Assembly: GCF_005280655.1 (NCBI RefSeq)
Contig: NZ_CP040058.1
Coordinates: 777,001-841,000, forward strand
Source of the DNA: Anaerostipes rhamnosivorans
GTDB lineage: Bacteria; Bacillota; Clostridia; Lachnospirales; Lachnospiraceae
Direction: 5' to 3'
DNA: 64,000 nucleotides
Shown here: positions 3,482 to 17,776 of the stretch, piece after piece
How positions within the stretch are numbered: the first letter of the stretch is position 1
Layout: each line of letters opens with the position of its first letter
Made by a program: the position numbers and the translations under genes
Notes under the pieces: generated by a model
Told to the model about the DNA's origin: nothing
Seen by the model: the letters and a program-made list of their open reading frames with translations, nothing else
Databases searched by the model: none

Positions 3482-5086
3482 ATGGACAAGATATATTTTA
3501 ACGGAGACATCCTGACAATGGAAGAAGACAGACAAGAGCCGGAAGCGGTCCTCGTATCGGGAACAGTCATAACGTTTGTGGGAAGCCTCAAGGAGGCAGA
3601 ACGCCTTTCTCCGGGAGCAGAGATGAACGATCTGAAAGGAAAGTCATTGATGCCGGCGTTCATTGACTGCCACAGCCATATTTCCCTTGTGGCCCAATTT
3701 TCCCAATTTGCAGATCTGTCAGGAAGTACAGATTTTCAGGATATCAAAGGGCGTCTGCTGGCATATCAAAAGGAGCAGAAAACCGGGGAAGACGGAGTGA
3801 TCATCGGTGTGGGTTATGATCATAATTTTCTGGAGGAAAAGAGGCATCCTGACAAGACCGTACTGGACCAGGTATCCGGGCGGGTACCAGTTTTTATCCT
3901 GCACGCTTCCGGGCACATGGGAGTTGCAAACTCCGCGCTTTTAAAGACCGCGGGCATCGATGCCACAACAAAAGATGTGGAGGGTTCCAGGTTCGGGCGG
4001 GTGCCGGGTTCCATGGAGCCGGATGGCTATGCGGAAGAGACAAAAGCTCTGAAGCTGCTTCTTGACCAGGTGTACAGCAAGGTGCCCAGGGATCCGAAAG
4101 CGCAGATACACAAAGCCCAGGAGCTTTACCTGTCCCATGGGATCACAACAGTACAGGATGGCGCCGCGTCCGCCCAGGATGTGGAGAGCTTATACGAGGC
4201 GGCTGGGGATGGCAGCCTGCTGGTGGATGTGGTCTCTTATATTCTGGTGGGAGAGAATCCAGAACAGGTGGAACAGAAGTATCCGGACCTTAAGAAACGG
4301 TATTGGAACCATATGAAGCTGGGAGGCCGGAAAGTGATCCTGGACGGTTCGCCCCAGGGCAGGACTGCTTGGCTTTCCAAACCGTATGAGGGGGAAACAG
4401 AGTACCGGGGATATCCAGCCATGGAGGACAGCGAAGTGAAAGGATATGCCGCCGATGCTATAAACAGCGGGATGCAGATCCTGGCCCACTGCAATGGGGA
4501 TGCAGCTTCCGAGCAATGGATCGAAGGCTGGAAAGCTGCCATGAAGCAGACGAAAACGGCAGAAAATGAGGATTTAAGGCCGGTGATGATCCACTGTCAG
4601 ACGGTGAGAAAGGAACAGCTCTCCCAGATGAAGAAGATCGGAATGATCCCGTCCATGTTCGTGGACCATGTTTACTTCTGGGGAGATATCCATCTAAAGA
4701 ACCTGGGAAAAGAGAGGGCAGAAGTCATAAGTCCGGCGAGATCGGCGTTTGAGCAGGGCCTCTGTGTGAATTTCCACCAAGACTCACCGGTAATCCCTCC
4801 GGACATGCTGCACACGGTCTGGTGCGCAGTGAACCGTACCACCAGAGAAGGGACCGTGCTTGGGGAAGAAGAAAGAGTGAGCATTTACCAGGCGTTAAAG
4901 GCAGTGACGATCAACGGAGCCTATGCCTATTTCGAGGAAGACCAAAAAGGAAGTATAACGGAAGGAAAGCTTGCGGATCTGGTGATCCTATCTCAAAATC
5001 CATTGAAAACCCCTCCCCAGAAGCTGAGAGAGATCAAGGTGGAAGAGACGGTGAAGGAGGGCAGGACTGTGTACCGGAGAGGTTAG
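3482..5086 (+). CDS. YtcJ-like amidohydrolase (amidohydrolase family 3)
   Basis: A 534-residue metal-dependent hydrolase of the amidohydrolase superfamily. The HxH metal motif is in DCHSHIS (residues 62-68) and further conserved histidines occur in the barrel, for example HCNGD and HQDSPV. The C-terminal segment GKLADLVILS is the usual end of the composite beta domain. Members hydrolyse amides, formamides or related C-N bonds; the substrate here is unknown. No signal peptide is present, so it acts in the cytosol. GAAAGGAAGAG precedes the ATG, and a 7-bp inverted repeat (CTGTAAA, 3435-3441; TTTACAG, 3460-3466) sits just upstream. Its stop overlaps the convergent LacI-type gene by 4 bases, and no terminator is visible between them. 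Confidence 0.85.
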   Translation: MDKIYFNGDILTMEEDRQEPEAVLVSGTVITFVGSLKEAERLSPGAEMNDLKGKSLMPAFIDCHSHISLVAQFSQFADLSGSTDFQDIKGRLLAYQKEQKTGEDGVIIGVGYDHNFLEEKRHPDKTVLDQVSGRVPVFILHASGHMGVANSALLKTAGIDATTKDVEGSRFGRVPGSMEPDGYAEETKALKLLLDQVYSKVPRDPKAQIHKAQELYLSHGITTVQDGAASAQDVESLYEAAGDGSLLVDVVSYILVGENPEQVEQKYPDLKKRYWNHMKLGGRKVILDGSPQGRTAWLSKPYEGETEYRGYPAMEDSEVKGYAADAINSGMQILAHCNGDAASEQWIEGWKAAMKQTKTAENEDLRPVMIHCQTVRKEQLSQMKKIGMIPSMFVDHVYFWGDIHLKNLGKERAEVISPARSAFEQGLCVNFHQDSPVIPPDMLHTVWCAVNRTTREGTVLGEEERVSIYQALKAVTINGAYAYFEEDQKGSITEGKLADLVILSQNPLKTPPQKLREIKVEETVKEGRTVYRRG

Positions 5087-6162
5087 GTATTCCTGGCCTT
5101 TCCGGTACTCTTGCGTTTCACGATAAATGGTTCAAACTCAAGCTTTGTCACAAAGCTTCTGGGTTTGTTCTTGGACTGGGATTCCCTGTGCCTTACGATG
5201 ATGTCCACAGCCTCCCTTCCCTTGGCCTCAATAGAGTGTTCCACGGAAGTCAGGGAGATCCGGCGCATGTCCGCCATAGGGATGTTGTCAAAACCGCACA
5301 CTGAAAAATCATTTGGGACTTTATACTTCATATCAAACAAGGCGTCTAAGATACCCAATGCCACCATATCATTGTAGGCCACAAAGGCAGTGGAGTCTGT
5401 CCCTTCCGTGAGGATTTCTTTGGTCAGGTTAAAGCCGCAGGAATACTCCAGCATGTTGGGGGAAAGAGTATTGTATTCCCCGGTGGAGACAGAACGGCAG
5501 GTCACATTCCCGGGATCAAAACCGTGTTCGTAAAAGGCTTTTTTTAGCCCCTCAAAACGCTTGGAGCGGGAACGCTCGATGGTGCTCATGGGTGTGGACA
5601 CATAGGTGATCTTCCGGTGGCCCAGGGACAACAGATGCTCTGCTACCAGATAAGCCGGTTTGGTGCTGCTTACATGAATAGAGTCAAACATGATGTCGTC
5701 ATTTTTGTCACCGATGTTGATCACAGGGATCTGTTTGGACAGCTGGTTTACATCGTCCAGCCAGGAAGTGGGGTAGAGATAGACAATGCCCGACGCGTCA
5801 AAGTCCTTTATCATATTCAGGTAGAACTGCTCAGTGTTGGGATTTCTTAAGGTTGGGGCCACAAATGTCACATATCCGTAGTCATGGGCGCGCTCTGTGA
5901 TAGAGTGCACTAAAATAGAATAATAGTGGTTGGATAGAAACGGGCACATGATGACAATGACCTTAGAAAGCCCGATCAGCTGGGTATCCTTTTTTTTCTT
6001 CTTTTCATAACCCAGTTCCTTTGCTGCATTTAACACCTTCTTTCTGGTCTCCTCTGAAAAGGACACATTGCTCTTCTGGTTCAGGATCATGGAAACTGCG
6101 GATTGGGAAACATTTGCATAGTTTGCAATATCTTTTGTGGTGATCTTCTTTTTCGAAGCCAT
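5083..6162 (-). CDS. LacI-family transcriptional regulator
   Basis: A 359-residue repressor with an N-terminal helix-turn-helix (TTKDIANYANVSQSAVSMIL, about residues 8-27) followed by a periplasmic-binding-protein-like sugar sensor domain. The start has AGGAGG directly upstream. It is divergent from fsa and the split transketolase across a 330-base AT-rich region holding several palindromes, so control of that sugar-phosphate operon and of its own gene is the natural inference. The effector is unknown. A lysine-rich stretch (KKKKKD, about residue 55) lies where the hinge to the sensor domain is expected. The alternative target is the convergent amidohydrolase, but that gene has its upstream region elsewhere. 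Confidence 0.9.
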   Translation of the reverse strand: MASKKKITTKDIANYANVSQSAVSMILNQKSNVSFSEETRKKVLNAAKELGYEKKKKKDTQLIGLSKVIVIMCPFLSNHYYSILVHSITERAHDYGYVTFVAPTLRNPNTEQFYLNMIKDFDASGIVYLYPTSWLDDVNQLSKQIPVINIGDKNDDIMFDSIHVSSTKPAYLVAEHLLSLGHRKITYVSTPMSTIERSRSKRFEGLKKAFYEHGFDPGNVTCRSVSTGEYNTLSPNMLEYSCGFNLTKEILTEGTDSTAFVAYNDMVALGILDALFDMKYKVPNDFSVCGFDNIPMADMRRISLTSVEHSIEAKGREAVDIIVRHRESQSKNKPRSFVTKLEFEPFIVKRKSTGKARNT

Positions 6163-7987: not shown

Positions 7988-8926
7988 ATGGCAGATGTAA
8001 AGAAAATCGCAACCAGAGAAAGCTATGGAAACGCCCTGGTTGAATTAGGAAAAGAAAATCCAAACGTAGTAGTGTTAGATGCCGATCTGGCTGCCGCTAC
8101 AAAGACTGGTGTATTTAAGAAAGAATTCCCGGAACGCCACATTGACTGCGGTATTGCGGAGTGCAATATGGTTGGAGTGGGAGCGGGACTTGCTGCCAGC
8201 GGAATGATTCCGTTTGTCAGTACATTTGCAATGTTTGCTGCAGGCCGTGCATATGAGCAGGTAAGAAATGGTGTGGGATATCCTCACCTGAACGTAAAGA
8301 TCGGCGCTACCCACGGCGGTATCTCTGTCGGAGAAGACGGTGCTACCCATCAGTGCTGTGAAGATGTGGCTTTAATGCGCACGATCCCTGGAATGACAGT
8401 CATTGTTCCTTCAGACGATGTAGAAGCAAAGGCAGTTGTAAAGGCAGCGGCAGAACTTGACGGACCTGTCTACATGAGATTCGGACGTCTGGCTGTGCCT
8501 GTGATCAATGACACAGCAGACTACAAATTTGAGATCGGAAAAGGTACCGTGTTAAGAGAAGGTACCGATGTGACCATCATCGCAAACGGACTCTGCGTAG
8601 GTGAAAGCCTTGAAGCTGCCGAGAAGCTTGCTGCAGACGGAATCAACGCAAAGGTTATCAACATGGCAACCGTGAAGCCGCTTGATGACGAGCTGGTGAT
8701 CGCAGCGGCAAAAGAGACCGGAAAAGTGGTCACAGTGGAAGAACATTCTGTGATCGGCGGACTTGGAAGCGCGGTATGTGATGTACTGAGTGAAAAAGCA
8801 CCGACTCCGGTACTGAAACTTGGCGTACAGGACGTATTCGGACATTCAGGACCGGCAGTTGCCCTGATTAAAGAATTCGGACTGGACAGCGAGGGTATCT
8901 ATAAGAGCGTAAAAGCTTTTGTATAG
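7988..8926 (+). CDS. Transketolase, C-terminal (pyrimidine-binding) subunit
   Basis: A 312-residue second half of transketolase, holding the pyrimidine-binding domain (about residues 1-165) and the C-terminal transketolase domain (about 185-305). DCGIAECNMVGVGAGLA contains the glutamate that activates the thiamine ring, and HGGISVGEDGATHQ is typical of the family. It starts one base after the N-terminal subunit. The gene ends in a strong terminator, so the operon is fsa and the two transketolase genes. Confidence 0.93.
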   Translation: MADVKKIATRESYGNALVELGKENPNVVVLDADLAAATKTGVFKKEFPERHIDCGIAECNMVGVGAGLAASGMIPFVSTFAMFAAGRAYEQVRNGVGYPHLNVKIGATHGGISVGEDGATHQCCEDVALMRTIPGMTVIVPSDDVEAKAVVKAAAELDGPVYMRFGRLAVPVINDTADYKFEIGKGTVLREGTDVTIIANGLCVGESLEAAEKLAADGINAKVINMATVKPLDDELVIAAAKETGKVVTVEEHSVIGGLGSAVCDVLSEKAPTPVLKLGVQDVFGHSGPAVALIKEFGLDSEGIYKSVKAFV

Positions 8927-8951
8927 AGAATCATCATATTAGCTTCATGAA

Positions 8952-8980
8952 AAAGGGACTTCTTCGGAGGTCTCTTTTTT
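8952..8980 (+). terminator. Intrinsic terminator after transketolase
   Basis: Arms 8952-8962 and 8967-8977 pair over 11 bp (two G-T pairs) around a TTCG tetraloop and run into TTTTTT. This isolates the operon from the PRD regulator gene. Confidence 0.9.
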
Positions 8981-8998
8981 GTTACTAGGAAAATTCTA

Positions 8999-9052
8999 CC
9001 GCATTAAAATGTCCGGACTCGATAATTTGGGCAAATTTTTCTATGCTATACT
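8999..9052 (+). promoter_or_regulatory. PRD-regulator gene promoter with upstream 19-bp element
   Basis: The element CCGCATTAAAATGTCCGGA (8999-9017) lies 48 bases upstream of TATACT (9047-9052), which has an extended -10 TG one base before it. No good -35 hexamer is present (AATTTG at the expected place). An almost identical element stands at the same distance from the -10 of the EIIB operon (11687-11740), which points to one activator for both promoters. Confidence 0.7.
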
Positions 9053-9114
9053 TGAAATAACAAAAAAGGAGGTGTAAAAAAGATTTCATTTTTATTGAGA
9101 GGAGCCTGGAAGGG

Positions 9115-11088
9115 ATGAGACGTTCAAAAGATAAATTCTATAAGAAACAGATTTTTGACTGCCTTATGGATGGAAAGATTGTTTCAGCGGGAAAAATTGC
9201 TCGGGAAGTAGGCCTTTCTGAAAAATCTGTAAGGAACAAGCTAGATGGAATGAATGAGTTTCTATTACAGAACAATCTGGGAGAGATCCGGCGCAAGCCA
9301 AGGGTTGGGATATGGCTGGAGGCAACCAATGAGCAGAAAGGGCAGATCCAAGCAATCCTTGGCAGGAGGGAAAAATATCAGGTGGGAAATTACGATCCTG
9401 AAGAGCGGATGACTGAAACCTTGAAGTTATTTTTTAACCTTCGTCCATGGCAGACACTGACAACACAGAAATTATCGGAAAAACTGTATTTGAGCGTTCC
9501 CACTATGCTGAAGGTGCTGAAAGAATGTGAAGAATGGCTGAACCAATACCATATCATATTAGTGAATGAAAGAGGTAAGGGATACCGGCTCAAAAGCCAG
9601 GAAAATGAATACAGGGTGGCATTAAAGAATCTGATCATGGATAAATCGGATGTGGAGGATATCCGGGCGAACATCAGTTATTTCTTTCCGAACATTGATG
9701 TGCGGGCAGTTGAAAAGTGCATTATCCAGACCGAAAATGAGTGGAAATATCGGTTTACGGATGATTCTTATTATGAAATTTTAATTTATTGCTGTTTAGC
9801 GTACAAACGAAAGGAGTTGGAAATTCCCCTGGTGAGCGATTACTATCAGGAGGAGCTTAAGATCCTAAAAAAATATACGGAATATGCTTTTACAGTGGCT
9901 ATTTTTGAAAAATTGGAGGAGGTGTTCCATGTACATTTTCTGTCTGAGGATATTCTGTTTTTGTCTATTCAGATCTTGTGTTCAAAATTTATCGGTATCT
10001 CTGAAGTGGAAGTTACTTTGGAGCAGGTAAAAAAGTATGATAATAAGCTGGTGGAATTTGTAGACAGGATGTTAAAAATGATCGGGGATGTGCTGGAAGT
10101 GGACCTGACCGCTGATCAGAAGGTGAAGGAAAGTCTGATCGTGCATCTGCGTCCCACAATATTCAGATTAAGATACGGAACACCTCAGGATAATGCTCTG
10201 ATTGATTTTATTAAAGAGGAGTATAAAAACGTATTCCGGGCCAGCTGGGTCATCAGCATTTTATTTGAGGAGAGTTATAACCTGCAGATCACAGAAGATG
10301 AGATCGGGTACATCGTGTTGTATATCCAGGCAGCCATGGAAAGGAAAAAGCATCAGTATAACGCATTAGTGATCACGGATTCCAACATGGGCCATGCCCA
10401 GCTGATCAAAGAACGGATAAGAAAGTTTGTACCGGAGATTGGAAAATTGGTATTTGTCAGCACCCACGATTATAAGACAGAGGATTATTGGGACTATGAT
10501 CTGATCATTTCCTCAAAGATCATGAAGACAAAGGATAAAAGGGTTGCTGTGATCCCGAACATTTTAAGTGAAAACGGAATCATCAGGCTAAGGAATCATC
10601 TGGATGATATGAACTCCCAGCTGATCGAGAATGAAAACCCATTCTCTCCCGAATGCTGCCTGCTGTTTTCACCGGAACTGATCTTCACAGGTCTAAACGT
10701 TCAGACCAAGGAAGAGTGTTTAAAAATCATGTGTGAAGCCATGCAAAAAAAGGGTGTCGTAAAAAATGACTTTTATGACACTGTGATGGAACGTGAAAGC
10801 AAGACAACAACGACCATCGGGAATGGAATCAGCCTTCCCCATGGATCCCCTACCGCTGTGAATGAATCAAAGGTGGCGATCGCTTTTTTAGAGAAACCGG
10901 TTATATGGGATGGGGAACAGATCCAGATTGTATTTCTGCTCGGTTTTAAAATGAATACAAGAGATGAGATTCACCGTATCCAGTTGTTTTACAAGGAATA
11001 TGTGTCCCTGATCGATACAGAGGAGAAGATTAAAATGTTAAGGAACATGAAATCAACGATTGAAGTGTATAAATATCTTATTCAGTAG
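9115..11088 (+). CDS. PRD-containing transcription regulator with EIIB-like and EIIA domains
   Basis: A 657-residue BglG/MtlR/LicR-type DNA-binding regulator controlled by PTS phosphorylation. Order: helix-turn-helix (about 1-65, AREVGLSEKSVRNKL), a linker domain, two PTS regulation domains (about 190-300 and 310-408), an EIIB-like domain (about 414-500) and a fructose-type EIIA domain (about 515-657). His344 in LIVHLRP of PRD2 and His576 in SLPHGS of the EIIA domain are present. The second expected PRD2 histidine is Tyr403 (GYIVLYI), and Ser423 occupies the usual Cys position of the EIIB-like domain, so some control sites are lost. It probably activates its own gene and the EIIB-EIIC-aldolase operon. 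GGAAGGG precedes the ATG. Confidence 0.92.
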   Translation: MRRSKDKFYKKQIFDCLMDGKIVSAGKIAREVGLSEKSVRNKLDGMNEFLLQNNLGEIRRKPRVGIWLEATNEQKGQIQAILGRREKYQVGNYDPEERMTETLKLFFNLRPWQTLTTQKLSEKLYLSVPTMLKVLKECEEWLNQYHIILVNERGKGYRLKSQENEYRVALKNLIMDKSDVEDIRANISYFFPNIDVRAVEKCIIQTENEWKYRFTDDSYYEILIYCCLAYKRKELEIPLVSDYYQEELKILKKYTEYAFTVAIFEKLEEVFHVHFLSEDILFLSIQILCSKFIGISEVEVTLEQVKKYDNKLVEFVDRMLKMIGDVLEVDLTADQKVKESLIVHLRPTIFRLRYGTPQDNALIDFIKEEYKNVFRASWVISILFEESYNLQITEDEIGYIVLYIQAAMERKKHQYNALVITDSNMGHAQLIKERIRKFVPEIGKLVFVSTHDYKTEDYWDYDLIISSKIMKTKDKRVAVIPNILSENGIIRLRNHLDDMNSQLIENENPFSPECCLLFSPELIFTGLNVQTKEECLKIMCEAMQKKGVVKNDFYDTVMERESKTTTTIGNGISLPHGSPTAVNESKVAIAFLEKPVIWDGEQIQIVFLLGFKMNTRDEIHRIQLFYKEYVSLIDTEEKIKMLRNMKSTIEVYKYLIQ

Positions 11089-11110
11089 TGAAAGGAAAAG
11101 GAGGACAAGG

Positions 11111-11560
11111 ATGGATATTAAAAGTGTGTTGGATGAGAGAGTCATTGACCTGCATATGAACGCAGGGGATAAAAAAGAGGCAATCTTATATCTGGCAGAA
11201 AAACTAAAGTCGGCGGGATATATCGCAGATGTGGATGAGTATGTGGCGGATATTTATGTGAGGGAAGCTCAAGGACAGACCGGGATCGGAAACTTTGTAG
11301 CCATTCCTCATGGAAAAAGTAGTTCGGTCACGCAGGTGGGGATTGCCATCGGAAAGCTGGACCAGGAGATCCAGTGGGAGACTTTAGACGGAAAAGGGGT
11401 AAAACTCATTTTTTTGTTTGCGGTGGGAAATGACAATGAGAACGCCAAGACCCATTTAAGACTTCTGGCGGAAGTTGCCAGGACTCTGGGGAACGATGAG
11501 GCTGTGAACACACTGCTTGAGGCAGAAAGTGTGGAAGATTTAAAGAAAGTATTTTCATAA
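11111..11560 (+). CDS. PTS fructose-family EIIA component
   Basis: A 149-residue soluble phosphocarrier that takes phosphate from HPr and passes it to the cognate EIIB. The active-site histidine is His67 in FVAIPHGKSS. Length and motif fit free-standing EIIA of the fructose/mannitol family. The ATG at 11111 has AGGAGG 5 bases before it; an upstream in-frame ATG inside the regulator gene lacks a ribosome site. It lies 22 bases after the PRD regulator, is probably co-transcribed with it, and is followed by a terminator, so EIIA is made with the regulator and apart from EIIB-EIIC. Confidence 0.93.
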   Translation: MDIKSVLDERVIDLHMNAGDKKEAILYLAEKLKSAGYIADVDEYVADIYVREAQGQTGIGNFVAIPHGKSSSVTQVGIAIGKLDQEIQWETLDGKGVKLIFLFAVGNDNENAKTHLRLLAEVARTLGNDEAVNTLLEAESVEDLKKVFS

Positions 11561-11578
11561 AAGTTGATGAAAGAACAG

Positions 11579-11609
11579 ACAGTTCCGGTTTTCCTGGAGC
11601 TGTTTTTTT
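11579..11609 (+). terminator. Intrinsic terminator after EIIA
   Basis: Ten-base arms ACAGTTCCGG and CTGGAGCTGT around a TTTTC loop, followed by seven T. It ends the regulator-EIIA unit before the EIIB promoter. Confidence 0.85.
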
Positions 11610-11686
11610 CTTAATATTGCTTATAAAATATTACCGGAATAAAGTGTTAAAACTGTCCGTTTTCTTTGGGAAAGGGAAAAGAAGTT

Positions 11687-11740
11687 CCGCATTAAAAAGC
11701 CCGGAGTTAATGAACACAGGGACACAAACTATAGTATGAT
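11687..11740 (+). promoter_or_regulatory. EIIB operon promoter with upstream 19-bp element
   Basis: CCGCATTAAAAAGCCCGGA (11687-11705) matches the element before the PRD gene at 17 of 19 positions and again lies 48 bases from the -10, here TATGAT at 11735-11740. A weak -35 (TGAACA) is possible. A third, poorer copy, CCGGAATAAAGTGT, begins at about 11633. The position around -60 to -42 suits an activator rather than a repressor. Confidence 0.7.
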
Positions 11741-11790
11741 TTATTCACAGGATAAAGTTCATCAGCCAGAAGGAAAGGAGGATACAGAAA

Positions 11791-12105
11791 ATGAAGATTG
11801 TAGGAATTGCAGCTTGTACATCAGGAATCGCCCATACATATATTGCAAAAGAAAAAATTGTAAGGGCAGCGCAGGAACTTGGATTTGAGGCGCATATTGA
11901 AACACAGGGGACCATAGGGACGGAAGATGAGGTGACACTGGAACAGATCAGGGAAGCTGATGTGGCGCTGATCGCGGCGGACATCAAAGTCGGCGGAAAA
12001 GAACGCTTCAAGGGCCTGCCTATCGTGGAGGTTCCGACAGAGGCAGTGATCAAAGCCCCGAAGAAACTGTTGCTGACCATCCAGGGAAAAGTTATGAAAA
12101 ATTAG
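11791..12105 (+). CDS. PTS fructose-family EIIB component
   Basis: A 104-residue cytosolic phosphocarrier; Cys9 in GIAACTSGIAHTYIAKE is the phosphorylation site, and the segment is typical of EIIB of the fructose family. It receives phosphate from EIIA and passes it to the sugar entering through EIIC. AAAGGAGG lies upstream of the ATG. It is the first gene of an operon EIIB-EIIC-aldolase-aldolase and starts about 50 bases after the promoter with the PRD-type element. Confidence 0.94.
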   Translation: MKIVGIAACTSGIAHTYIAKEKIVRAAQELGFEAHIETQGTIGTEDEVTLEQIREADVALIAADIKVGGKERFKGLPIVEVPTEAVIKAPKKLLLTIQGKVMKN

Positions 12106-12126
12106 AGAAGAAAAGGGAGGACAACG

Positions 12127-13209
12127 ATGCTAAAAAAATTACAGTTAAAAAAACATGCCATGACCGCCATTTCTTACATGCTGCCGTTGGTTGTGGCTTC
12201 TGGTCTGCTGATCGCCATTGGAAATCTCACCGGCGGTTCTGTCATTGAAGATTATGCAAAATCATTTTCTGTGCCGTCCGCCTTAACCAGCCTCGGAGTG
12301 CTGGGGATGGGGCTGCTTGCGCCGGTGATTTCTGCGGCGATTGCTTACTCGATTGCGGACAGGCCGGGAATTGCCCCAGGTCTGCTGATCGGCTGTATCG
12401 CCAAAGAAATCGGGGCCGGATTTTTAGGAGGCATGCTGGGAGGCTATATTGTTGGATTCTTTGTACTCTGGCTGAAGGATAAGCTGAAAGTCCCGAAATG
12501 GGCGGAGGGCCTGATGCCGATGATGATCGTTCCGACCATTGCGTCGATTGTGGTTGGGCTCTTAATGTTTTTTGTCATTGGAGTGCCGATCGTATGGCTG
12601 ACCAACGCATTGACAGAATTCCTGACAAGTATGCAGGGCAGCGCCAAATTTGTATTTGGTGCCATCATGGGAGGAATGGCGGCCTTTGACTTTGGAGGCC
12701 CCGTCAACAAAGTTGCCTCGCTGTTTGCGGACGGCTTGCTGCTGGAAGGTGTCCAGGGGCCGGAGGCAGTGAAGATCCTGGCATCTATGGTGCCCCCATT
12801 CGGAGTGACTCTCTCATATGCGGCGTCAAAATTTATGAAGAAGCAGAAGTATAATAAAGAGGAAGAAGATAATATTAAGATCGCATTCCCGATGGGCATC
12901 TGTATGATCACGGAAGGGGTCATCCCAATCGCCATGAACGATTTGGTACGTGTGGTATTCTCCTGTACAGTGGGAGCTGCCATCGGCGGTGGCCTATCTA
13001 TGATGTGGGGTGTGGAATCACCGGTGCCATCCGGAGGCATGTTTATTGTTCCGGCCATGAATAAGCCGCTGCAGTTCTGTCTGGCGCTGGCTATCGGTTC
13101 CGTAATCACGGGAATCCTTCTGTTCATACTGAAAAAGAAACCTGTGGAAAACCAGGCCGACACGGAGGAAGAGGAAGATATTGATTTCTCAGATATTAAA
13201 ATTTCATAA
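12127..13209 (+). CDS. PTS fructose-family EIIC permease
   Basis: A 360-residue membrane permease with about nine hydrophobic segments. FDFGGPVNKVA (about residues 188-198) and ITEGVIPIA are typical of fructose-family EIIC proteins. It moves a sugar across the membrane while EIIB phosphorylates it. The last 25 residues are acidic and cytosolic. The split into separate A, B and C proteins differs from the fused FruA of many bacteria, and no 1-phosphofructokinase of clear FruK type is in the operon, so fructose itself is not assured as substrate. The two aldolases downstream suggest a ketose phosphate or bisphosphate intermediate. Confidence 0.92.
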   Translation: MLKKLQLKKHAMTAISYMLPLVVASGLLIAIGNLTGGSVIEDYAKSFSVPSALTSLGVLGMGLLAPVISAAIAYSIADRPGIAPGLLIGCIAKEIGAGFLGGMLGGYIVGFFVLWLKDKLKVPKWAEGLMPMMIVPTIASIVVGLLMFFVIGVPIVWLTNALTEFLTSMQGSAKFVFGAIMGGMAAFDFGGPVNKVASLFADGLLLEGVQGPEAVKILASMVPPFGVTLSYAASKFMKKQKYNKEEEDNIKIAFPMGICMITEGVIPIAMNDLVRVVFSCTVGAAIGGGLSMMWGVESPVPSGGMFIVPAMNKPLQFCLALAIGSVITGILLFILKKKPVENQADTEEEEDIDFSDIKIS

Positions 13210-13222
13210 GGAGTAGAAGAAA

Positions 13223-14077
13223 ATGTATGTATCCATGAAGGGAATGCTGAGCCGTGCCAATGAAGAAAACTATGCAGTCATGGCGATCAATTGCTTTAAT
13301 ATAGAAACAGCCAGAGCAGTCATTGAGGCAGCCCAGTCTTTAAGGGCCCCTGTCATTGTGAATATTGTTCAGGAGCATATGGTAAAACACTGCGACAGCA
13401 GTCTGATCGCTCCTATAGTAAAAAAACTGGCCCAGAGAGCCAGCGTGGAGGTGGCGTTGAATTTCGACCATGGTGAGGACCCTGGTTTATTAAAGAAAGC
13501 TCTGGTTGACGGTTATTCCAGTGTGATGGTAGATGCTTCTGCCTATGACCTGGAAGGCAACATCAAGATGACCAAAGAGATCGTGGACTTTGCAAGCCAA
13601 TTTGACGCCAGCGTGGAAGGGGAGATCGGCTGTATGGGAGTCAGTGAAGGAGACCATTATACAGATGATGATATGAAGACAGATCCGGACGAAGCGCTGC
13701 GTTTTGCCAGAGAGACCGGAATCGACGCACTGGCAATCTCTTTCGGGAGCTCCCATGGGAATTATCCGGAAGGATTTGTACCCGCATTTGATTTTGAAAT
13801 ACTGAAGAACATTAAAGAAAAGACAAAAATGCCTCTTGTTCTTCACGGAGGAAGCGGATCCGGGGATGATAATATCCGTAAATGCGTGGAATATGGGATC
13901 AATAAAATAAACGTGGGATGTGATTTTATGAATGCCAATGTGGAAAGCATCAAAAGACAGCTGGACAAAGATCCGGATATTAATTATTGGGTCATGATGC
14001 ACCAGGCAGAAAAGGACAGTCGTGAGCTTGTAAAAAAGTACATTAAATTGTCAAAGTCTGAAGGAAAATCATTATAA
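13223..14077 (+). CDS. Class II ketose-bisphosphate aldolase (first copy)
   Basis: A 284-residue zinc-dependent aldolase of the fructose/tagatose-bisphosphate class, which cleaves a ketose bisphosphate to DHAP and an aldehyde. Catalytic Asp82 and zinc ligand His83 lie in NFDHGED; further zinc ligands are in SSHGNYPEG and VLHGGSG. NFDHG replaces the more common HLDHG, and the second copy downstream differs clearly, so the two are diverged paralogues, not a recent duplication. It lies 13 bases after EIIC with GGAG before the start. The substrate (fructose, tagatose or another ketose bisphosphate) cannot be fixed by sequence. Confidence 0.9.
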   Translation: MYVSMKGMLSRANEENYAVMAINCFNIETARAVIEAAQSLRAPVIVNIVQEHMVKHCDSSLIAPIVKKLAQRASVEVALNFDHGEDPGLLKKALVDGYSSVMVDASAYDLEGNIKMTKEIVDFASQFDASVEGEIGCMGVSEGDHYTDDDMKTDPDEALRFARETGIDALAISFGSSHGNYPEGFVPAFDFEILKNIKEKTKMPLVLHGGSGSGDDNIRKCVEYGINKINVGCDFMNANVESIKRQLDKDPDINYWVMMHQAEKDSRELVKKYIKLSKSEGKSL

Positions 14078-14101
14078 AAAGAAGATAAGGAGAATCGTAC
14101 A

Positions 14102-14971
14102 ATGTTGATGAATATGAAAGATTTGCTGAAGGTAGCAGATGAAAAAGGGTTTGCAGTGCCTGCATTTAATATCGGAAGCGACCAGCTGTTAAAAGCGGTC
14201 ATGCAGGAAGTAAAAGAGTTAAGGAGTCCCGTGATCCTGGAAATGTCTCCCGATGAGTTTCATTTTGTGGAGGACAGTCTGGTTCAAAGTATGATCTACG
14301 AAGCATCTAAAACTGATGTGCCGGTGGTTATTCACCTGGACCATGGAGACACATTTGAGACAGTCATGCAGGCCATTCGGGCAGGGTTCACTTCTGTTAT
14401 GATCGACGCATCAACGCTTCCATATGAAGAGAACGTTGCGGTTACAAAAAAGGTATGTGAGGTGGCTCATCTGGTGGGAGTTTCTGTGGAGAGCGAATTA
14501 GGAACCATCGGAACCACAGGGAATTCAATTGAGGGCGGCACCACCGGTGTCATCTATACGGATCCTGAACAGGCAAATGATTTTGTGAAGCAGACGGGCA
14601 TTGATACCCTGGCGGTGGCAATCGGAACGGCTCATGGAATTTATCCGAGTGATAGGAAACCGGAACTCCGGCTGGATATTTTGCAGACATTAAAGGATTC
14701 ATTAGATATCCCTCTCGTGCTGCATGGGGGATCCAGCAATAAGGATGAAGAGATTGCAAAAGCAGTGAAGATCGGAATCTCTAAGATCAACATTTCCAGT
14801 GACATCAAAGCAGCCTTTTATGCAAAATGCCGGGAGGTCTTAAAGGAGCATCCAGAATACAGGGAACCATTGGAGATTTATCCAGAGCCGATCAAAGCCT
14901 GCAAGGCAGTGGTGGCGGATAAAATAGTACTTTTTGATTCCAGGGATAAAGTAAAATATTATTATGGGTAA
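14102..14971 (+). CDS. Class II ketose-bisphosphate aldolase (second copy)
   Basis: A 289-residue zinc aldolase of the same class as its upstream neighbour. Asp80 and His81 lie in HLDHGDTFE, with the other zinc ligands in TAHGIYPSD and VLHGGSS. It carries a family-typical glutamate segment (VSVESELGTIG). AAGGAG precedes the first ATG; two further in-frame ATG codons follow within five codons. It closes the EIIB-EIIC operon before a terminator. Two diverged aldolases in one PTS operon suggest either two substrates or a heteromeric or backup function. Confidence 0.9.
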   Translation: MLMNMKDLLKVADEKGFAVPAFNIGSDQLLKAVMQEVKELRSPVILEMSPDEFHFVEDSLVQSMIYEASKTDVPVVIHLDHGDTFETVMQAIRAGFTSVMIDASTLPYEENVAVTKKVCEVAHLVGVSVESELGTIGTTGNSIEGGTTGVIYTDPEQANDFVKQTGIDTLAVAIGTAHGIYPSDRKPELRLDILQTLKDSLDIPLVLHGGSSNKDEEIAKAVKIGISKINISSDIKAAFYAKCREVLKEHPEYREPLEIYPEPIKACKAVVADKIVLFDSRDKVKYYYG

Positions 14972-14986
14972 AACGATCGTTTGAGG

Positions 14987-15014
14987 AAAGGGGCGGCTTC
15001 GGCTGCTCTTTTCT
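14987..15014 (+). terminator. Intrinsic terminator after second aldolase
   Basis: Eleven-base arms (14987-14997 and 15002-15012, three G-T pairs) with a TTCG tetraloop and a T-rich tail. The ROK kinase gene starts about 50 bases later, possibly by read-through. Confidence 0.8.
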
Positions 15015-15065
15015 TCATTTCACAGAAAACTTGTTATTTAACAAATCTAAGAAAGGCGGAGAGAT

Positions 15066-15956
15066 ATGAGATATGCAGTTGGCATTGATGTGGGTGGAAC
15101 GAATACAAGGGTGGCTTTGATCGATGAACACTTTCATATTATACAGAGAGAACAATTTCTGACGGACAAAGAGGAGGCTGGGGAAACGATTTGCGGAATA
15201 AAGAACATCATTCGTGGCTTTCAGGTAAAAGTGGAGGGCATCAGCATCTCCTGCCCGGGGCCATTGGACTTGATGGCAGGTATTGTATTGACCCCGCCCA
15301 ATCTTCCGGGCTGGCATAATTTGCCCATAGAAAAGAGACTTCAAGAAGCTCTGGGAGTTCCGGTATACCTGGAAAATGACGCAAATCTGGCGTGCTTGGC
15401 GGAAGCGGCAGCAGGTGCGGGTAAGGATAGCAGATATGTTCAGTTCTTGACGGTCTCTACCGGAATTGGGGCAGGATTTTGTATAGACCGGAAGATCTAT
15501 CATGGTTCCAGGGGATTTGCGCAGGAGGTGGCCAATTCCGTTTTGTGGAGGAACGGTCCGTTCCAGGGAGATCTGAAAAAAGGATCTGTGGAATCCATCT
15601 CCAGTGGGACTGCCATTGTCAAGAGAGCAAAGGAAGCCGGACTTTCTGTAAAGCATGCCGGTGAGGTTTATCAGCTTGCAGAAAAAGGGAACACAGCGGC
15701 AAAGGAGATTATGGAGGATGCATATGAATTCCTTTCAAATTTTATTGGTATCTTATATGGGGTTCTGGATCCCGATTTGTTTATACTTGGCGGAAGCGTT
15801 GCCTTAAAGATTCCTGGATTTATTGAAGAAATTCAGAGTAGGGCAGAGGAAAAGGTATACACAGCATTGAGAGATCATATTCATGTTGTACCAGCGCAGC
15901 TTGGGGAAGACTGTGGTCTGATTGGCGCGGCGTATCTGGTATTTCACACACCGTAA
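15066..15956 (+). CDS. ROK-family sugar kinase, zinc-motif lacking
   Basis: A 296-residue ROK protein (repressor, ORF, kinase) without a DNA-binding domain, so a sugar kinase such as gluco-, fructo- or allokinase. GIDVGGTNTRVALID near the N-terminus binds ATP phosphate, ENDANLACLAEA holds the catalytic Asp, and LILGGS-like FILGGSVAL follows. The usual CxCGxxGCxE zinc motif is replaced by PFQGDLKKGSVE with no cysteine, so zinc cannot be bound in the normal way. GAAAGG precedes the ATG. It lies between the PTS operon terminator and a ribokinase-like gene, and probably belongs to the same sugar metabolism. Confidence 0.85.
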   Translation: MRYAVGIDVGGTNTRVALIDEHFHIIQREQFLTDKEEAGETICGIKNIIRGFQVKVEGISISCPGPLDLMAGIVLTPPNLPGWHNLPIEKRLQEALGVPVYLENDANLACLAEAAAGAGKDSRYVQFLTVSTGIGAGFCIDRKIYHGSRGFAQEVANSVLWRNGPFQGDLKKGSVESISSGTAIVKRAKEAGLSVKHAGEVYQLAEKGNTAAKEIMEDAYEFLSNFIGILYGVLDPDLFILGGSVALKIPGFIEEIQSRAEEKVYTALRDHIHVVPAQLGEDCGLIGAAYLVFHTP

Positions 15957-15993
15957 TAAAGAAGAAAAACTCATTTCTTCCTATGTTGACAGA

Positions 15994-16002
15994 TGTTATA
16001 AT
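15994..16002 (+). promoter_or_regulatory. Extended -10 promoter of the PfkB-family kinase gene
   Basis: TGTTATAAT is a perfect extended -10 element about 30 bases before the start codon of the kinase gene. A TTGACA at 15986-15991 is too close to serve as its -35. Confidence 0.5.
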
Positions 16003-16032
16003 AAGATAAAAACGGGTCTGGGAGGTAGCTTT

Positions 16033-16902
16033 ATGAAGGTGTTAAATTATGGCTCTTTAAACTATGATTTTGTATATCAGGTGGACCACATCACGGAGCC
16101 TGGAGAGACACAGGCGTCAGACAAAAGGGAGACGTTTTGCGGCGGCAAGGGGCTGAACCAGTCCATTGCACTTGCAAAAGCCGGGGTGAAGGTCTTTCAG
16201 GGCGGTACGGTTGGAAGTGACGGGCAGATGCTCCTCGATGTGCTGAATGAATACGGGGTGGATACTGCTTTTGTGCGCACGGTTGACGGAGAGACCGGAC
16301 ATGCAGTCATACAAGTGGACCGGAATGCGCAAAACGGAATACTGCTCTTTGGGGGAGCAAATATGAGGCAGTCTAAGACAGAAATGGATAAGGCGCTGGA
16401 GCAGTTTAGACCAGAAGATTTTCTATTGATTCAGAATGAGATCAATCTGTTGGATTATCTTATTGATAGAGCTTTTGAACGGGGGCTGCGAATTGTGTGT
16501 AATCCCTCACCTTATAATAACGCGCTGGACTGTTGTGACTTTTCTAAAATCTCTATTTTTATGCTTAATGAAGTTGAAGGTTTCCAGATGACAGGAAAGA
16601 GAGAGCCGGATAAAATACTGAATGTGATGGCAGAACAGTTTCCAGCAGCAGAGATCGTATTGACGCTGGGGGAGGAAGGCGCTGTGTATCAGAAAGGAAC
16701 AGAGAGGATTAAACAGGCCTGTGTGCCGACAGATGTGGTAGATACCACTGCGGCAGGAGATACGTTTACCGGTTATTTCATTGCGGGTATCATTGACGGT
16801 ATGTGTCCGGCGGATAATTTAAAAAGGTGTGCGAAAGCATCCTCCATTGCGGTATCCCGTAAGGGAGCGGCACCGTCCATTCCTTTTGCAGAAGAAGTTT
16901 GA
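16033..16902 (+). CDS. PfkB-family carbohydrate kinase, ribokinase-like
   Basis: A 289-residue kinase of the ribokinase superfamily. TFCGGKGLNQSIALAKAG near residues 36-53 is the first PfkB signature, and DTTAAGDTFTGYF near residues 236-250 is the second, with the catalytic Asp of the anion hole. The DTTAAGD form is that of ribokinases rather than DTTGAGD of phosphofructokinases. GGAGGT at 16021-16026 fixes the ATG at 16033; a longer frame upstream has no ribosome site. It could phosphorylate ribose, linking to the transketolase operon, or another sugar of the PTS island. Confidence 0.85.
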   Translation: MKVLNYGSLNYDFVYQVDHITEPGETQASDKRETFCGGKGLNQSIALAKAGVKVFQGGTVGSDGQMLLDVLNEYGVDTAFVRTVDGETGHAVIQVDRNAQNGILLFGGANMRQSKTEMDKALEQFRPEDFLLIQNEINLLDYLIDRAFERGLRIVCNPSPYNNALDCCDFSKISIFMLNEVEGFQMTGKREPDKILNVMAEQFPAAEIVLTLGEEGAVYQKGTERIKQACVPTDVVDTTAAGDTFTGYFIAGIIDGMCPADNLKRCAKASSIAVSRKGAAPSIPFAEEV

Positions 16903-16944
16903 ATCTTAGAAATTTTCTGAATATAACTAAAATGGAAAAATATG

Positions 16945-16973
16945 TTGTTTCCTTTGCGCATAAGAGATATAAT
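16945..16973 (+). promoter_or_regulatory. Promoter of the heptad-repeat gene
   Basis: TTGTTT, 17 bases, then a perfect TATAAT (16968-16973), about 30 bases before the ATG. Confidence 0.6.
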
Positions 16974-17003
16974 AGACTTAACACAAAAGAAGGAGGTCGG
17001 AGA

Positions 17004-17492
17004 ATGGACGACAATACATTACTTATAAAGATTGAAGAAATAATGGACCAAAAACTGGATGAGAAACTAGACCTTAAACTTCAGCCGATCTATGATAGAC
17101 TGACAGGGGTAGAAGACAGACTGACAGGGGTAGAGGATAGACAGACAGGGGTAGAGGATAGACTGACAGAGGTAGAAGTCAGGCTGACAGGGGTAGAGGA
17201 TAGACAGACAGGGGTAGAAGTTAGGCTGACAGGGGTAGAGGATAGATTGACAGGAGTAGAAGATAGACAGACCTCAATGGAGGAGGATCTTACCTCGGTT
17301 AAGAAAACATGTTTCCGCGTAGAAAATGAGTTGATCCCTCAGTTAAATGCTCTCTATGAAGATAGGATACCACATGCGGAGTTTCGTAGATTGAGTGAGC
17401 AGGTAGAACAAAATACGAGGATGCTCTCAGTGATGAAGGACGTCATCATCAGCCATAGTGAAGAAATTAGATGTCTTAAAGAAGTGAAGTAA
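17004..17492 (+). CDS. Heptad-repeat coiled-coil protein of unknown function
   Basis: A 162-residue, strongly charged soluble protein with no signal peptide or membrane segment. Residues 32-94 are nine heptads of the type RLTGVED, with Leu and Val at a/d positions, so a long parallel coiled coil is expected. A leading acidic/lysine helix (KIEEIMDQKLDEKLDLKL) and a C-terminal helical part (about 100-162) flank it. AAGGAGG at 16990-16996 fixes the ATG at 17004. It has its own promoter and terminator and is a single-gene unit. Similar short heptad proteins occur in Lachnospiraceae genomes; no function can be assigned. The repeat number could change by slippage because the DNA repeats are nearly identical. 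Confidence 0.75.
   Translation: MDDNTLLIKIEEIMDQKLDEKLDLKLQPIYDRLTGVEDRLTGVEDRQTGVEDRLTEVEVRLTGVEDRQTGVEVRLTGVEDRLTGVEDRQTSMEEDLTSVKKTCFRVENELIPQLNALYEDRIPHAEFRRLSEQVEQNTRMLSVMKDVIISHSEEIRCLKEVK
17097..17285 (+). repeat. 21-bp tandem repeats inside the coiled-coil gene
   Basis: Nine units of 21 bp, each coding one heptad (R-L/Q-T-G-V-E-D). Several units are nearly identical at DNA level, for example the recurring CTGACAGGGGTAGA. The period is exactly seven codons, so gain or loss of units would keep the frame. Confidence 0.9.
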
Positions 17493-17543
17493 TACTTCTG
17501 ATTGACCCTTCTTTCCCGTATAATTCTAATCCGTACGGACAGC

Positions 17544-17578
17544 AAAAACCACCAGCCAAGTATGCTGGTGGTTTTTTT
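17544..17578 (+). terminator. Intrinsic terminator after coiled-coil gene
   Basis: A perfect 13-bp stem with core ACCACCAGC/GCTGGTGGT, a 7-base loop and a T run of seven. It probably works on both strands, because the other strand also ends in T. Confidence 0.92.
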
Positions 17579-17589
17579 AGTTCAGTTTT

Positions 17590-17776
17590 ATTGAGTCTCG
17601 GTAACGGCTTTCGCACTAAATTCAACCTTCGCCTTTGGCTCGGTTTCATTAAGTGAGCAAAGGAAGTTACACTCGACTAAGCATTCGACTTTCGCCTGCG
17701 GCTCGGTCTCATTGAGTCTCGGTAACGGCTTTCGCACTAAATTCAACCTTCGCCTTTGGCTCGGTTTCATTAAGTG
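17590..17776. repeat. Duplicated 66-bp non-coding repeat with a degenerate middle unit
   Basis: Bases 17590-17655 and 17711-17776 appear identical over 66 bp, with a period of 121 bp. Between them lies a degenerate relative (TTCGCCTGCGGCTCGGT against TTCGCCTTTGGCTCGGT). The units contain small inverted repeats such as GCCTTTGGC. A minus-strand frame across the block reads the two identical copies in different frames, so coding is unlikely. The block lies between the coiled-coil terminator and the 3' end of glmS; apart from it the gap 17493-17796 holds only the terminator. Confidence 0.85.

What the first reader, a model, noticed from the sequence alone, without database searches (positions are those of the whole stretch)
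8999..11740. Two matching 19-bp elements at the same distance from two PTS promoters
CCGCATTAAAATGTCCGGA (8999-9017) and CCGCATTAAAAAGCCCGGA (11687-11705) differ at 2 of 19 positions. Each starts exactly 48 bases before a -10 hexamer (TATACT 9047; TATGAT 11735), and neither promoter has a good -35. Seen: sequence and spacing. Known: PRD regulators of the MtlR/LicR group activate PTS promoters from sites just upstream of -35. Inferred: this is the binding site of the PRD regulator at 9115, acting on its own gene and on EIIB-EIIC-aldolases. A weaker third copy begins near 11633.
Basis: partly seen in the sequence, partly recalled or inferred. Interest (0 to 1): 0.72.

Follow-up and report, generated by a model that had tools for sequence, protein, structure and literature searches.

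The report
Operator pair of a sugar-PTS regulator
Two matching DNA elements in a gut bacterium are very probably the binding sites through which a sugar-responsive regulator switches on its own gene and the neighbouring sugar-uptake genes, an arrangement already known from the Bacillus mannitol system but with its own binding sequence and an unusually rigid promoter layout.

Summary
In detail: both 19-mers lie where stated, each starting exactly 48 nt before a -10 hexamer. The PRD-EIIA-EIIB-EIIC-aldolase-aldolase-ROK locus occurs in 6 of 11 genomes of the genus and in 2 of the 5 listed from another. All 18 regulator and EIIB promoters read there, two of them relics, carry the element, with the best -10 at offset 48 when TGn is given a bonus, 14 of 18 without. 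In the genus, zero-mismatch matches to a degenerate 19-mer lie only at this locus or a relic (14 of 14). The 19-mer is the core of a roughly 38-nt block: A-tract, TACCRYATTAAAANGYCC, TYRAT half-site reaching the -35 position. The weak third copy (CC at 11634) matches a box at -53/-54 in 8 of 8 EIIB promoters. Regulators 30-34% identical have TTACC in that slot with other letters after it, and the 48-nt distance still holds (17 of 18 with bonus, 10 of 18 without). Best explanation: operator of the local PRD regulator at -35-less promoters, with autoregulation, as in Bacillus MtlR. A new member of a known kind. No binding or transcription data exist.

The parts
8947..8982 (+). Hairpin with a U-rich 3' side between the transketolase gene and the regulator promoter (intrinsic-terminator-like)
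   Evidence: RNA fold -17.8 kcal/mol, z -4.76; the consensus scan did not list it
8990..9027 (+).
   Evidence: sequence; alignment of 16 promoters; 18 promoters
9044..9052 (+). Extended -10, TGC TATACT, 48 nt from the CC of the operator
   Evidence: the only TACC-N43-TGnTAnnnT on either strand of the window
9115..11088 (+). PRD regulator: Mga-type HTH, two PRDs, EIIB-like region without Cys, EIIA domain; H344 and H576 kept
   Evidence: ORF; Pfam; alignments
11111..11560 (+). Fructose-type PTS EIIA
   Evidence: TIGR00848 126 bits, above cut-off; PF00359
11577..11610 (+). Terminator-like hairpin between EIIA and the EIIB promoter
   Evidence: 12-pair stem plus T run; z -4.45
11632..11652 (+). 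Second, degenerate upstream box (TACCGGAATAAAGTG...), CC at 11634, 53 nt before the main site
   Evidence: p=0.13 alone; a box at -53/-54 in 8 of 8 EIIB promoters
11678..11715 (+).
11735..11740 (+). -10 TATGAT, 48 nt from the CC of the operator, no TGn
11791..12105 (+). Fructose-type PTS EIIB
   Evidence: TIGR00829 above cut-off
12127..13209 (+). Fructose-type PTS EIIC
   Evidence: TIGR01427 above cut-off
13223..14077 (+). Class II ketose-bisphosphate aldolase 1
14102..14971 (+). Class II ketose-bisphosphate aldolase 2
15066..15956 (+). ROK-family sugar kinase, last gene of the unit shared by the 7 loci compared
   Evidence: synteny; the G010 deletion ends in its last few codons

Best explanation
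The two elements are the core of two operators for the PRD regulator encoded at 9115-11088. The regulator binds next to, and overlapping, the place of a missing -35 hexamer, and helps RNA polymerase open two promoters: its own (regulator-EIIA) and that of EIIB-EIIC-aldolase-aldolase-ROK. Autoactivation therefore accompanies induction of the transporter. SHOWN by sequence: conservation of the block, the fixed 48-nt spacing, co-occurrence with the regulator, restriction to this locus in the genus, second boxes upstream, terminator-like hairpins that separate the two units. INFERRED: that this regulator is the protein that binds, that it activates, that the named -10s are used, and that PTS phosphorylation (probably at H344 in PRD2 and H576 in the EIIA domain) sets its activity.
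For: Orthologs of the regulator (65-80% identical) occur in 6 of 11 genomes of the genus, the window's own included, and in 2 of the 5 genomes of genus g245 listed (71% and 70%). All 14 zero-mismatch genus hits lie at this locus or at the G010 relic; of 15 one-mismatch hits 5 lie at the locus or the A. hominis relic and 10 elsewhere, against 13 hits of the reversed control pattern. In 18 of 18 promoters (10 regulator, 8 EIIB) the best -10 starts at offset 48 with a TGn bonus, 14 of 18 without, although offsets 29-43 are little conserved (at most 1.1 bits). Columns not used to find the sites are conserved too: A-tract, A18, T20, A23, T24. Regulators 30-34% identical have TTACC with other letters after it, and offset 48 in 17 of 18 loci with the bonus. 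In G010 one deletion removed everything from about codon 27 of the regulator to the last few codons of ROK, so the genes behave as one unit. MtlR of B. subtilis: one operator type before both mtlA and mtlR, autoinduction, proposed class II contact (PMC3217849, passages).
Against: No binding, footprint or RNA data. The genomes with this element belong to two genera of one family, so the counts are not independent. Four of 8 EIIB promoters, this one included, lack TGn. Without the TGn bonus another hexamer ties or wins in 4 of 18 main and 8 of 18 distant promoters. Of the 14 second boxes tested, 5 are not significant, the window's included, and the window's own regulator promoter has none. The G010 operator is still intact although the regulator is gone (recent loss, or another user). 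The first HTH of the 34% homolog G405 differs little from ours (GLSEKTIRTK against GLSEKSVRNK); the second differs more.
Confidence: 0.83

Rival explanations
1. The element is bound by another regulator, such as the LacI-family protein at 5083-6162, CcpA, or an unlinked protein.
For: LacI and transketolase genes adjoin the locus in the window and the A. hominis relic. Binding was not tested.
Against: No LacI hit (tblastn, E<=1e-10) in the fetched stretches of 15-20 kb around the other 6 orthologous loci that carry the element. No cre-like site with 2 mismatches or fewer lies in either intergenic region (8927-9114, 11561-11790); the nearest 2-mismatch sites (8646, 9251, 11843) and the 1-mismatch site at 10568 are inside coding sequence, and the window has no more such sites than shuffles (45 against a mean of 36.6; 13 of 100 shuffles reach 45). 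In the genus, zero-mismatch hits occur only where the regulator gene or its remnant is.
Confidence: 0.07
2. The PRD protein binds the element but represses, being released by the sugar.
For: The block reaches the -35 position, where a bound protein could block polymerase.
Against: Neither promoter has a good -35, so each looks activator-dependent. Studied precedents (MtlR, ManR) are described as activators (PMC3217849, PMC4495994, passages).
Confidence: 0.06
3. It is a sigma-factor or UP-type core promoter element that needs no dedicated regulator.
For: A-tract and rigid spacing to the -10.
Against: Zero-mismatch hits are confined to this locus and its relic in the genus. The CC..GYCC core is not UP-like (recalled knowledge of UP elements). 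The letters change with the regulator in the 30-34% homologs while the spacing stays.
Confidence: 0.03
4. It is an RNA element (antiterminator or riboswitch-like) in a longer transcript.
For: The consensus scan calls a weak stem at 9010-9033.
Against: It lies upstream of the proposed -10 in 18 of 18 promoters. Rfam gives no match at E<=1 in 8400-17600. The spacing to the -10 is what is conserved; a conserved fold was not searched for.
Confidence: 0.01

Closest known systems
Bacillus subtilis MtlR with PmtlA and PmtlR (PMC3217849, passages; PMC8560693, passages; PMC10992428, passages)
   Same: HTHs (Mga-like second HTH), two PRDs, EIIB-like and EIIA parts; one operator type before both the regulator gene and the PTS operon; position next to sigma; a long operator (42 nt shared, an inner palindrome with conserved flanks).
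   Different: The MtlR box is TTGTCA-spacer-TGCCAA; the 42-nt shared sequence lies 7 nt upstream of mapped -35 boxes (TTGTAT, TTGATT). Here the sequence is unrelated, the block overlaps the -35 position, a good -35 is missing, and a second box lies 43-54 nt upstream in 16 of 18 promoters. Here both PRD1 His, the second PRD2 His and the EIIB Cys are missing.
Bacillus subtilis ManR, manPA and manR promoters (PMC4495994, passages)
   Same: PRD-containing activator listed as regulator of its own gene and of the PTS operon.
   Different: Discussed there as a possible class I activator through alpha-CTD with sites upstream of -35. Its operator sequence and domain order were not read here.
AtxA/Mga/MafR-type PRD virulence regulators (PMC8560693, passages)
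   Same: Two N-terminal HTHs including the Mga HTH, and PRDs.
   Different: They lack the EIIA domain and are reported to bind AT-rich, curved DNA with little consensus; here the proposed operator is strongly sequence-conserved.

Membership tests
MtlR/LicR-type PRD transcription activators | Mga-type (second) HTH | tested here: met
   PF05043 1.2e-10 at 113-168; PF08279 25.8 bits, cut-off 25, over the same stretch
MtlR/LicR-type PRD transcription activators | A separate first HTH at the N-terminus | tested here: inconclusive
   residues 1-70 align with the N-termini of PRD paralogs but have no Pfam hit of their own
MtlR/LicR-type PRD transcription activators | Two PRDs | tested here: met
   PF00874, 2 stretches
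MtlR/LicR-type PRD transcription activators | EIIB(Gat)-like domain | tested here: inconclusive
   no Pfam hit in the region; aligns with the corresponding part of paralog L029
MtlR/LicR-type PRD transcription activators | Conserved Cys in the EIIB-like domain (MtlR C419) | tested here: not met
   VCIAG of paralog L029 aligns with ITDSN; no Cys there in 7 of 7 orthologs aligned. MtlR itself was not aligned
MtlR/LicR-type PRD transcription activators | All four PRD histidines | tested here: not met
   only H344 (first PRD2 position) kept, in 7 of 7 orthologs; the other three His of L029 align with Y, Q and Y
MtlR/LicR-type PRD transcription activators | C-terminal EIIA_2 domain with active-site His | tested here: met
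   PF00359 1.7e-28; H576 in 7 of 7 orthologs
MtlR/LicR-type PRD transcription activators | Shared operator before own gene and PTS genes, next to the RNA polymerase site | tested here: met
   18 of 18 promoters by sequence; binding itself not tested
MtlR/LicR-type PRD transcription activators | Activation controlled by PTS phosphorylation | not testable with these tools
   needs biochemistry
LevR-type sigma54 PRD activators | Sigma-54 AAA+ domain | tested here: not met
   no such Pfam domain
BglG/LicT antiterminators | CAT RNA-binding domain and RAT terminator overlap | tested here: not met
   no CAT domain; NCBIfam LicT and GlcT far below cut-off; no Rfam hit
AcpB/EbpR/MafR regulators | NCBIfam NF053736 cut-off of 130 bits | tested here: not met
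   55 bits
CcpA cre site | WTGNAARCGNWWWCA | tested here: not met
   no match with 2 mismatches or fewer in 8927-9114 or 11561-11790

The most novel reading that the evidence does not exclude
A whole clade of fructose-type PRD regulators in this family of bacteria uses a rigid -35-less promoter code: TACC, nearly always after an A-tract, exactly 48 nt before a -10 that is usually TGn-extended, with a second box near -44/-53 in one subclade. The regulator-specific letters inside the operator drift, but the geometry is frozen. In this species the code and the regulator have been kept while the EIIB-EIIC transporter was replaced (55-60% identical to the others, which are 85-98% alike), so a conserved sensor may now be served by a foreign transporter.
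Probability: 0.35. Interest if true: 0.5.

Novelty: new member of a known kind. Interest (0 to 1): 0.36.

Why it matters
It gives a concrete, testable operator and promoter layout for a PRD regulator in Anaerostipes and a related genus. It suggests that EIIB promoters of related PRD regulators could be found from geometry, and it offers natural experiments: operators left behind after whole or partial operon loss, and a retained regulator beside a diverged transporter. It does not change how PRD activators are thought to work.

Tried and rejected
Searched for other targets of the element in the own genome. Six 3-mismatch hits (L003-L008): none has TA...T in the 48-nt slot, and 4 of 6 lie inside open frames of 120 codons or more. 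Family scan with a 27-mer, up to 2 mismatches, 397 genomes: 9 places in 7 genomes, against 3 hits of the reversed control. Four of the 9 are the operator pairs of G000 (0, 0 mismatches) and G268 (0, 1); of the other five one (G346) has 1 mismatch and four have 2. Three of these five lie inside open frames, one (G414) between frames, and one (G282, L088) ends about 85 nt upstream of a small membrane-protein frame and was not followed.

Looked for the element at the 33% homologs L036 and L037, where the regulator sits inside the operon. Only 5-mismatch matches, none before the operon; upstream of the L037 operon I saw a vague resemblance by eye and make no claim. L038 starts inside the regulator gene, so its promoter could not be read.

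Considered a direct-repeat reading of the block (ACC at 0 and near +27, clear in the distant clade) beside the inverted-repeat reading CATTAA-N11-TTAATG. The evidence does not decide: the right half is TTAAT in some promoters only; columns 21-22 are T10/C6 and A9/G7 of 16.

Considered cre, Rfam elements, LacI and sigma54: see rivals. Literature searches. I saw no listed paper on this regulator or operator in Anaerostipes; the genus name has no occurrence in the 15 papers listed of 32 found. That is the whole basis for calling it undescribed. Papers were seen as found passages or as listings only.

Caveats on my own counts. In one search the sites were found with a pattern that fixes CC, ATTAA, A, G and CC, so those columns are conserved by construction; that every expected promoter gave a hit is the evidence. 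T48, A49 and T53 were also required there; this dropped one match only, the A. hominis upstream copy at 11531. The G504 pair was found with one mismatch allowed. The -10 weights are my own ad hoc numbers. In the distant clade the slot was anchored on the A-tract plus TTACC, so only the distance is tested there.
Full report
THE OBSERVATION. Both 19-mers are present at 8999-9017 and 11687-11705 and differ at 2 positions; each starts exactly 48 nt before TATACT (9047) or TATGAT (11735). A degenerate version with up to 3 mismatches hits the window only there; 100 shuffles give a mean of 0.06 hits and never 2. In the 3.59-Mb genome the same search gives 8 hits (reversed control 0): these 2 and 6 with 3 mismatches, 4 of the 6 inside open frames of 120 codons or more and none with a -10 in the 48-nt slot.

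THE LOCUS. Pfam and NCBIfam give: PRD regulator (Mga HTH, two PRDs, EIIA_2) at 9115-11088; fructose-type EIIA at 11111-11560; EIIB at 11791-12105; EIIC at 12127-13209; two class II ketose-bisphosphate aldolases; a ROK kinase; then a PfkB kinase. Terminator-like hairpins lie before the regulator promoter (z -4.76) and between EIIA and the EIIB promoter (z -4.45), so the two operators probably serve two transcription units. The label 'Acac' (A. caccae) in my scripts is recalled, not tested.

CONSERVATION. Close orthologs of the regulator (65-80%) occur in 6 of 11 genus genomes, the window's own included, and in G268 and G504 (71%, 70%), 2 of the 5 genomes of genus g245 listed. The order REG-EIIA-EIIB-EIIC-Ald-Ald-ROK is the same in the 7 loci compared (G504 was not compared). 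I read 18 promoters: 10 before regulators (two of them relics) and 8 before EIIB. All 18 carry the element. With a bonus for TGn the best -10 between offsets 36 and 61 is at 48 in 18 of 18. Without the bonus it is at 48 in 14 of 18; in three of the other four another hexamer scores the same as 48 and in one it scores 0.1 more. TGn is present in 10 of 10 regulator promoters and 4 of 8 EIIB promoters, not in the window's EIIB promoter.

THE FULL OPERATOR. Aligning 16 of these shows a block from -9 to +28 around the CC: AAAAA-NN-T-A-CCRYATTAAAANGYCC-NN-A-N-TYRATRA-N-C. Columns that were not used to find the sites are conserved too (A at -9 to -7 in 16 of 16; A18 in 15 of 16; T20, A23 and T24 in 16 of 16), while offsets 29-43 carry at most 1.1 bits each. 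The EIIB site of the window reads as an interrupted inverted repeat, CATTAA-N11-TTAATG; the regulator site has a poorer right half (TCGATA). With a 17-nt spacer a -35 hexamer would sit at offsets 25-30, so the block overlaps that place.

THE UPSTREAM COPIES. A T(A/T/G)CC(A/G) box lies 43-54 nt upstream of the main site in 16 of 18 promoters: all 8 EIIB at -53/-54, and 8 of 10 regulator promoters at -43/-44 or -54. It is missing before the window's own regulator gene and before the A. hominis relic. In a leave-one-genome-out matrix scan of 16 promoters, 14 have such a box; 9 of the 14 have p<=0.02 and 5 are not significant, the window's own copy at 11634 among them (p=0.13); two more copies sit at -97 in A. 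butyraticus and Ca. A. excrementavium. The two spacing classes differ by about one helical turn.

SPECIFICITY. In 11 genus genomes a degenerate 19-nt pattern with up to 1 mismatch has 29 hits. All 14 with no mismatch lie at this locus or at the G010 relic; of 15 with one mismatch 5 lie at the locus or the A. hominis relic and 10 elsewhere; the reversed control pattern has 13 hits. The four genus genomes with neither locus nor relic (G002, G006, G008, G009) have no zero-mismatch hit. In 397 family genomes a 27-mer with up to 2 mismatches hits 9 places in 7 genomes, the control 3 places; 4 of the 9 are the operator pairs of G000 and G268, which are also the only two of the 397 with a close ortholog, and one unrelated place (G346) has a single mismatch. 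The regulon therefore looks local.

NATURAL EXPERIMENTS. In G010 the operon is deleted from about codon 27 of the regulator to the last few codons of ROK, judged against A. butyraticus; the operator and -10 remain. In A. hominis a second, broken copy at the same chromosomal place as the window's locus keeps an operator with 2 changes from the window's, while the gene has lost about residues 53-267 and everything from about 595 on to about ROK residue 228.

DISTANT HOMOLOGS. In 17 genomes of another genus (17 of 145 searched) plus G234 there is a regulator 30-34% identical to ours; the operon order is EIIB-EIIC-aldolase-regulator-EIIA in the two examined (G405, G234). All 18 EIIB promoters read have TTACC with CC 48 nt before a TGnTAnnnT, 17 of 18 after an A-tract as defined; 3 loci also have such a -10 at distance 43. 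The best -10 is at 48 in 17 of 18 with the TGn bonus and in 10 of 18 without it. The letters after TTACC differ among three subgroups and from ours. The HTH residues differ too, little in the first HTH (GLSEKSVRNK in 7 of 7 of ours; GLSEKTIRTK in G405), more in the second. A frozen distance under changing letters is what a regulator contacting RNA polymerase should leave.

HOW IT LIKELY WORKS. By analogy with MtlR: B. subtilis mtlA and mtlR share a 42-nt sequence 7 nt upstream of -35, MtlR autoinduces, and a class II contact with sigma was proposed (PMC3217849, passages). Here a good -35 hexamer is missing and, before the regulator, an extended -10 compensates. MtlR is described as phosphorylated at four PRD histidines, with conserved C419 and H599 (PMC8560693, passages). 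Aligned with paralog L029 of the same genome, which has His or Cys at the six places I take to correspond (MtlR itself was not aligned), our regulator keeps only the first PRD2 His (H344) and the EIIA His (H576). So the signal probably enters through these two: activation through PRD2 by HPr and inhibition or recruitment through EIIA would follow the MtlR scheme, but that is inference.

TRANSPORTER SWAP. EIIB and EIIC of the window are 55-60% identical to those of the 6 other loci compared, which are 85-97% (EIIB) and 86-98% (EIIC) alike among themselves, although the window's regulator is 65-80% and its aldolases 78-89% identical to theirs. No closer EIIC than 60% was found in 195 relatives at E<=1e-90. 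Replacement by an unsampled donor, or fast divergence, has happened under a conserved operator.

VERDICT. It is an ordinary kind of system with its own operator sequence, a larger site than reported, and a notably rigid geometry. The sugar is unknown.

Noticed in passing
window 11791-13209: EIIB and EIIC are far more diverged from the orthologous loci (55-60%) than their neighbours in the operon, while the other loci's EIIB/EIIC are 85-98% alike: likely transporter replacement or fast divergence in this lineage.
   Followed up: partly
L035 8887-11400: A. hominis holds a broken remnant of this operon at the syntenic place (regulator start, later regulator part, end of ROK, PfkB) and a complete copy elsewhere (L034).
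   Followed up: partly
L083 (G010:C16), around 4370 on the + strand of the locus: Whole-operon deletion that leaves the operator, the -10 and about 27 regulator codons.
   Followed up: yes
window 16899-17492 and L035 11373-11921: Small coiled-coil-like gene with tandem repeats (DRLTGVEDRQTGVE in the window, LEGRFNSLEGRF in A. hominis); the repeat unit differs between the two species.
   Followed up: no
L029 1435-3447 and L030 1471-3435: Two paralogous PRD-EIIA regulators in the same genome, 23% identical; L029 has all six presumed phosphorylation residues, and neither has the TNCC-48 layout within 400 nt upstream of its start.
   Followed up: partly
L088 1593-1619: A 2-mismatch operator-like sequence ending about 85 nt upstream of a small membrane-protein frame (ECF-transporter-like by eye) in G282, a genome without a regulator match at E<=1e-70; probably chance.
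   Followed up: no
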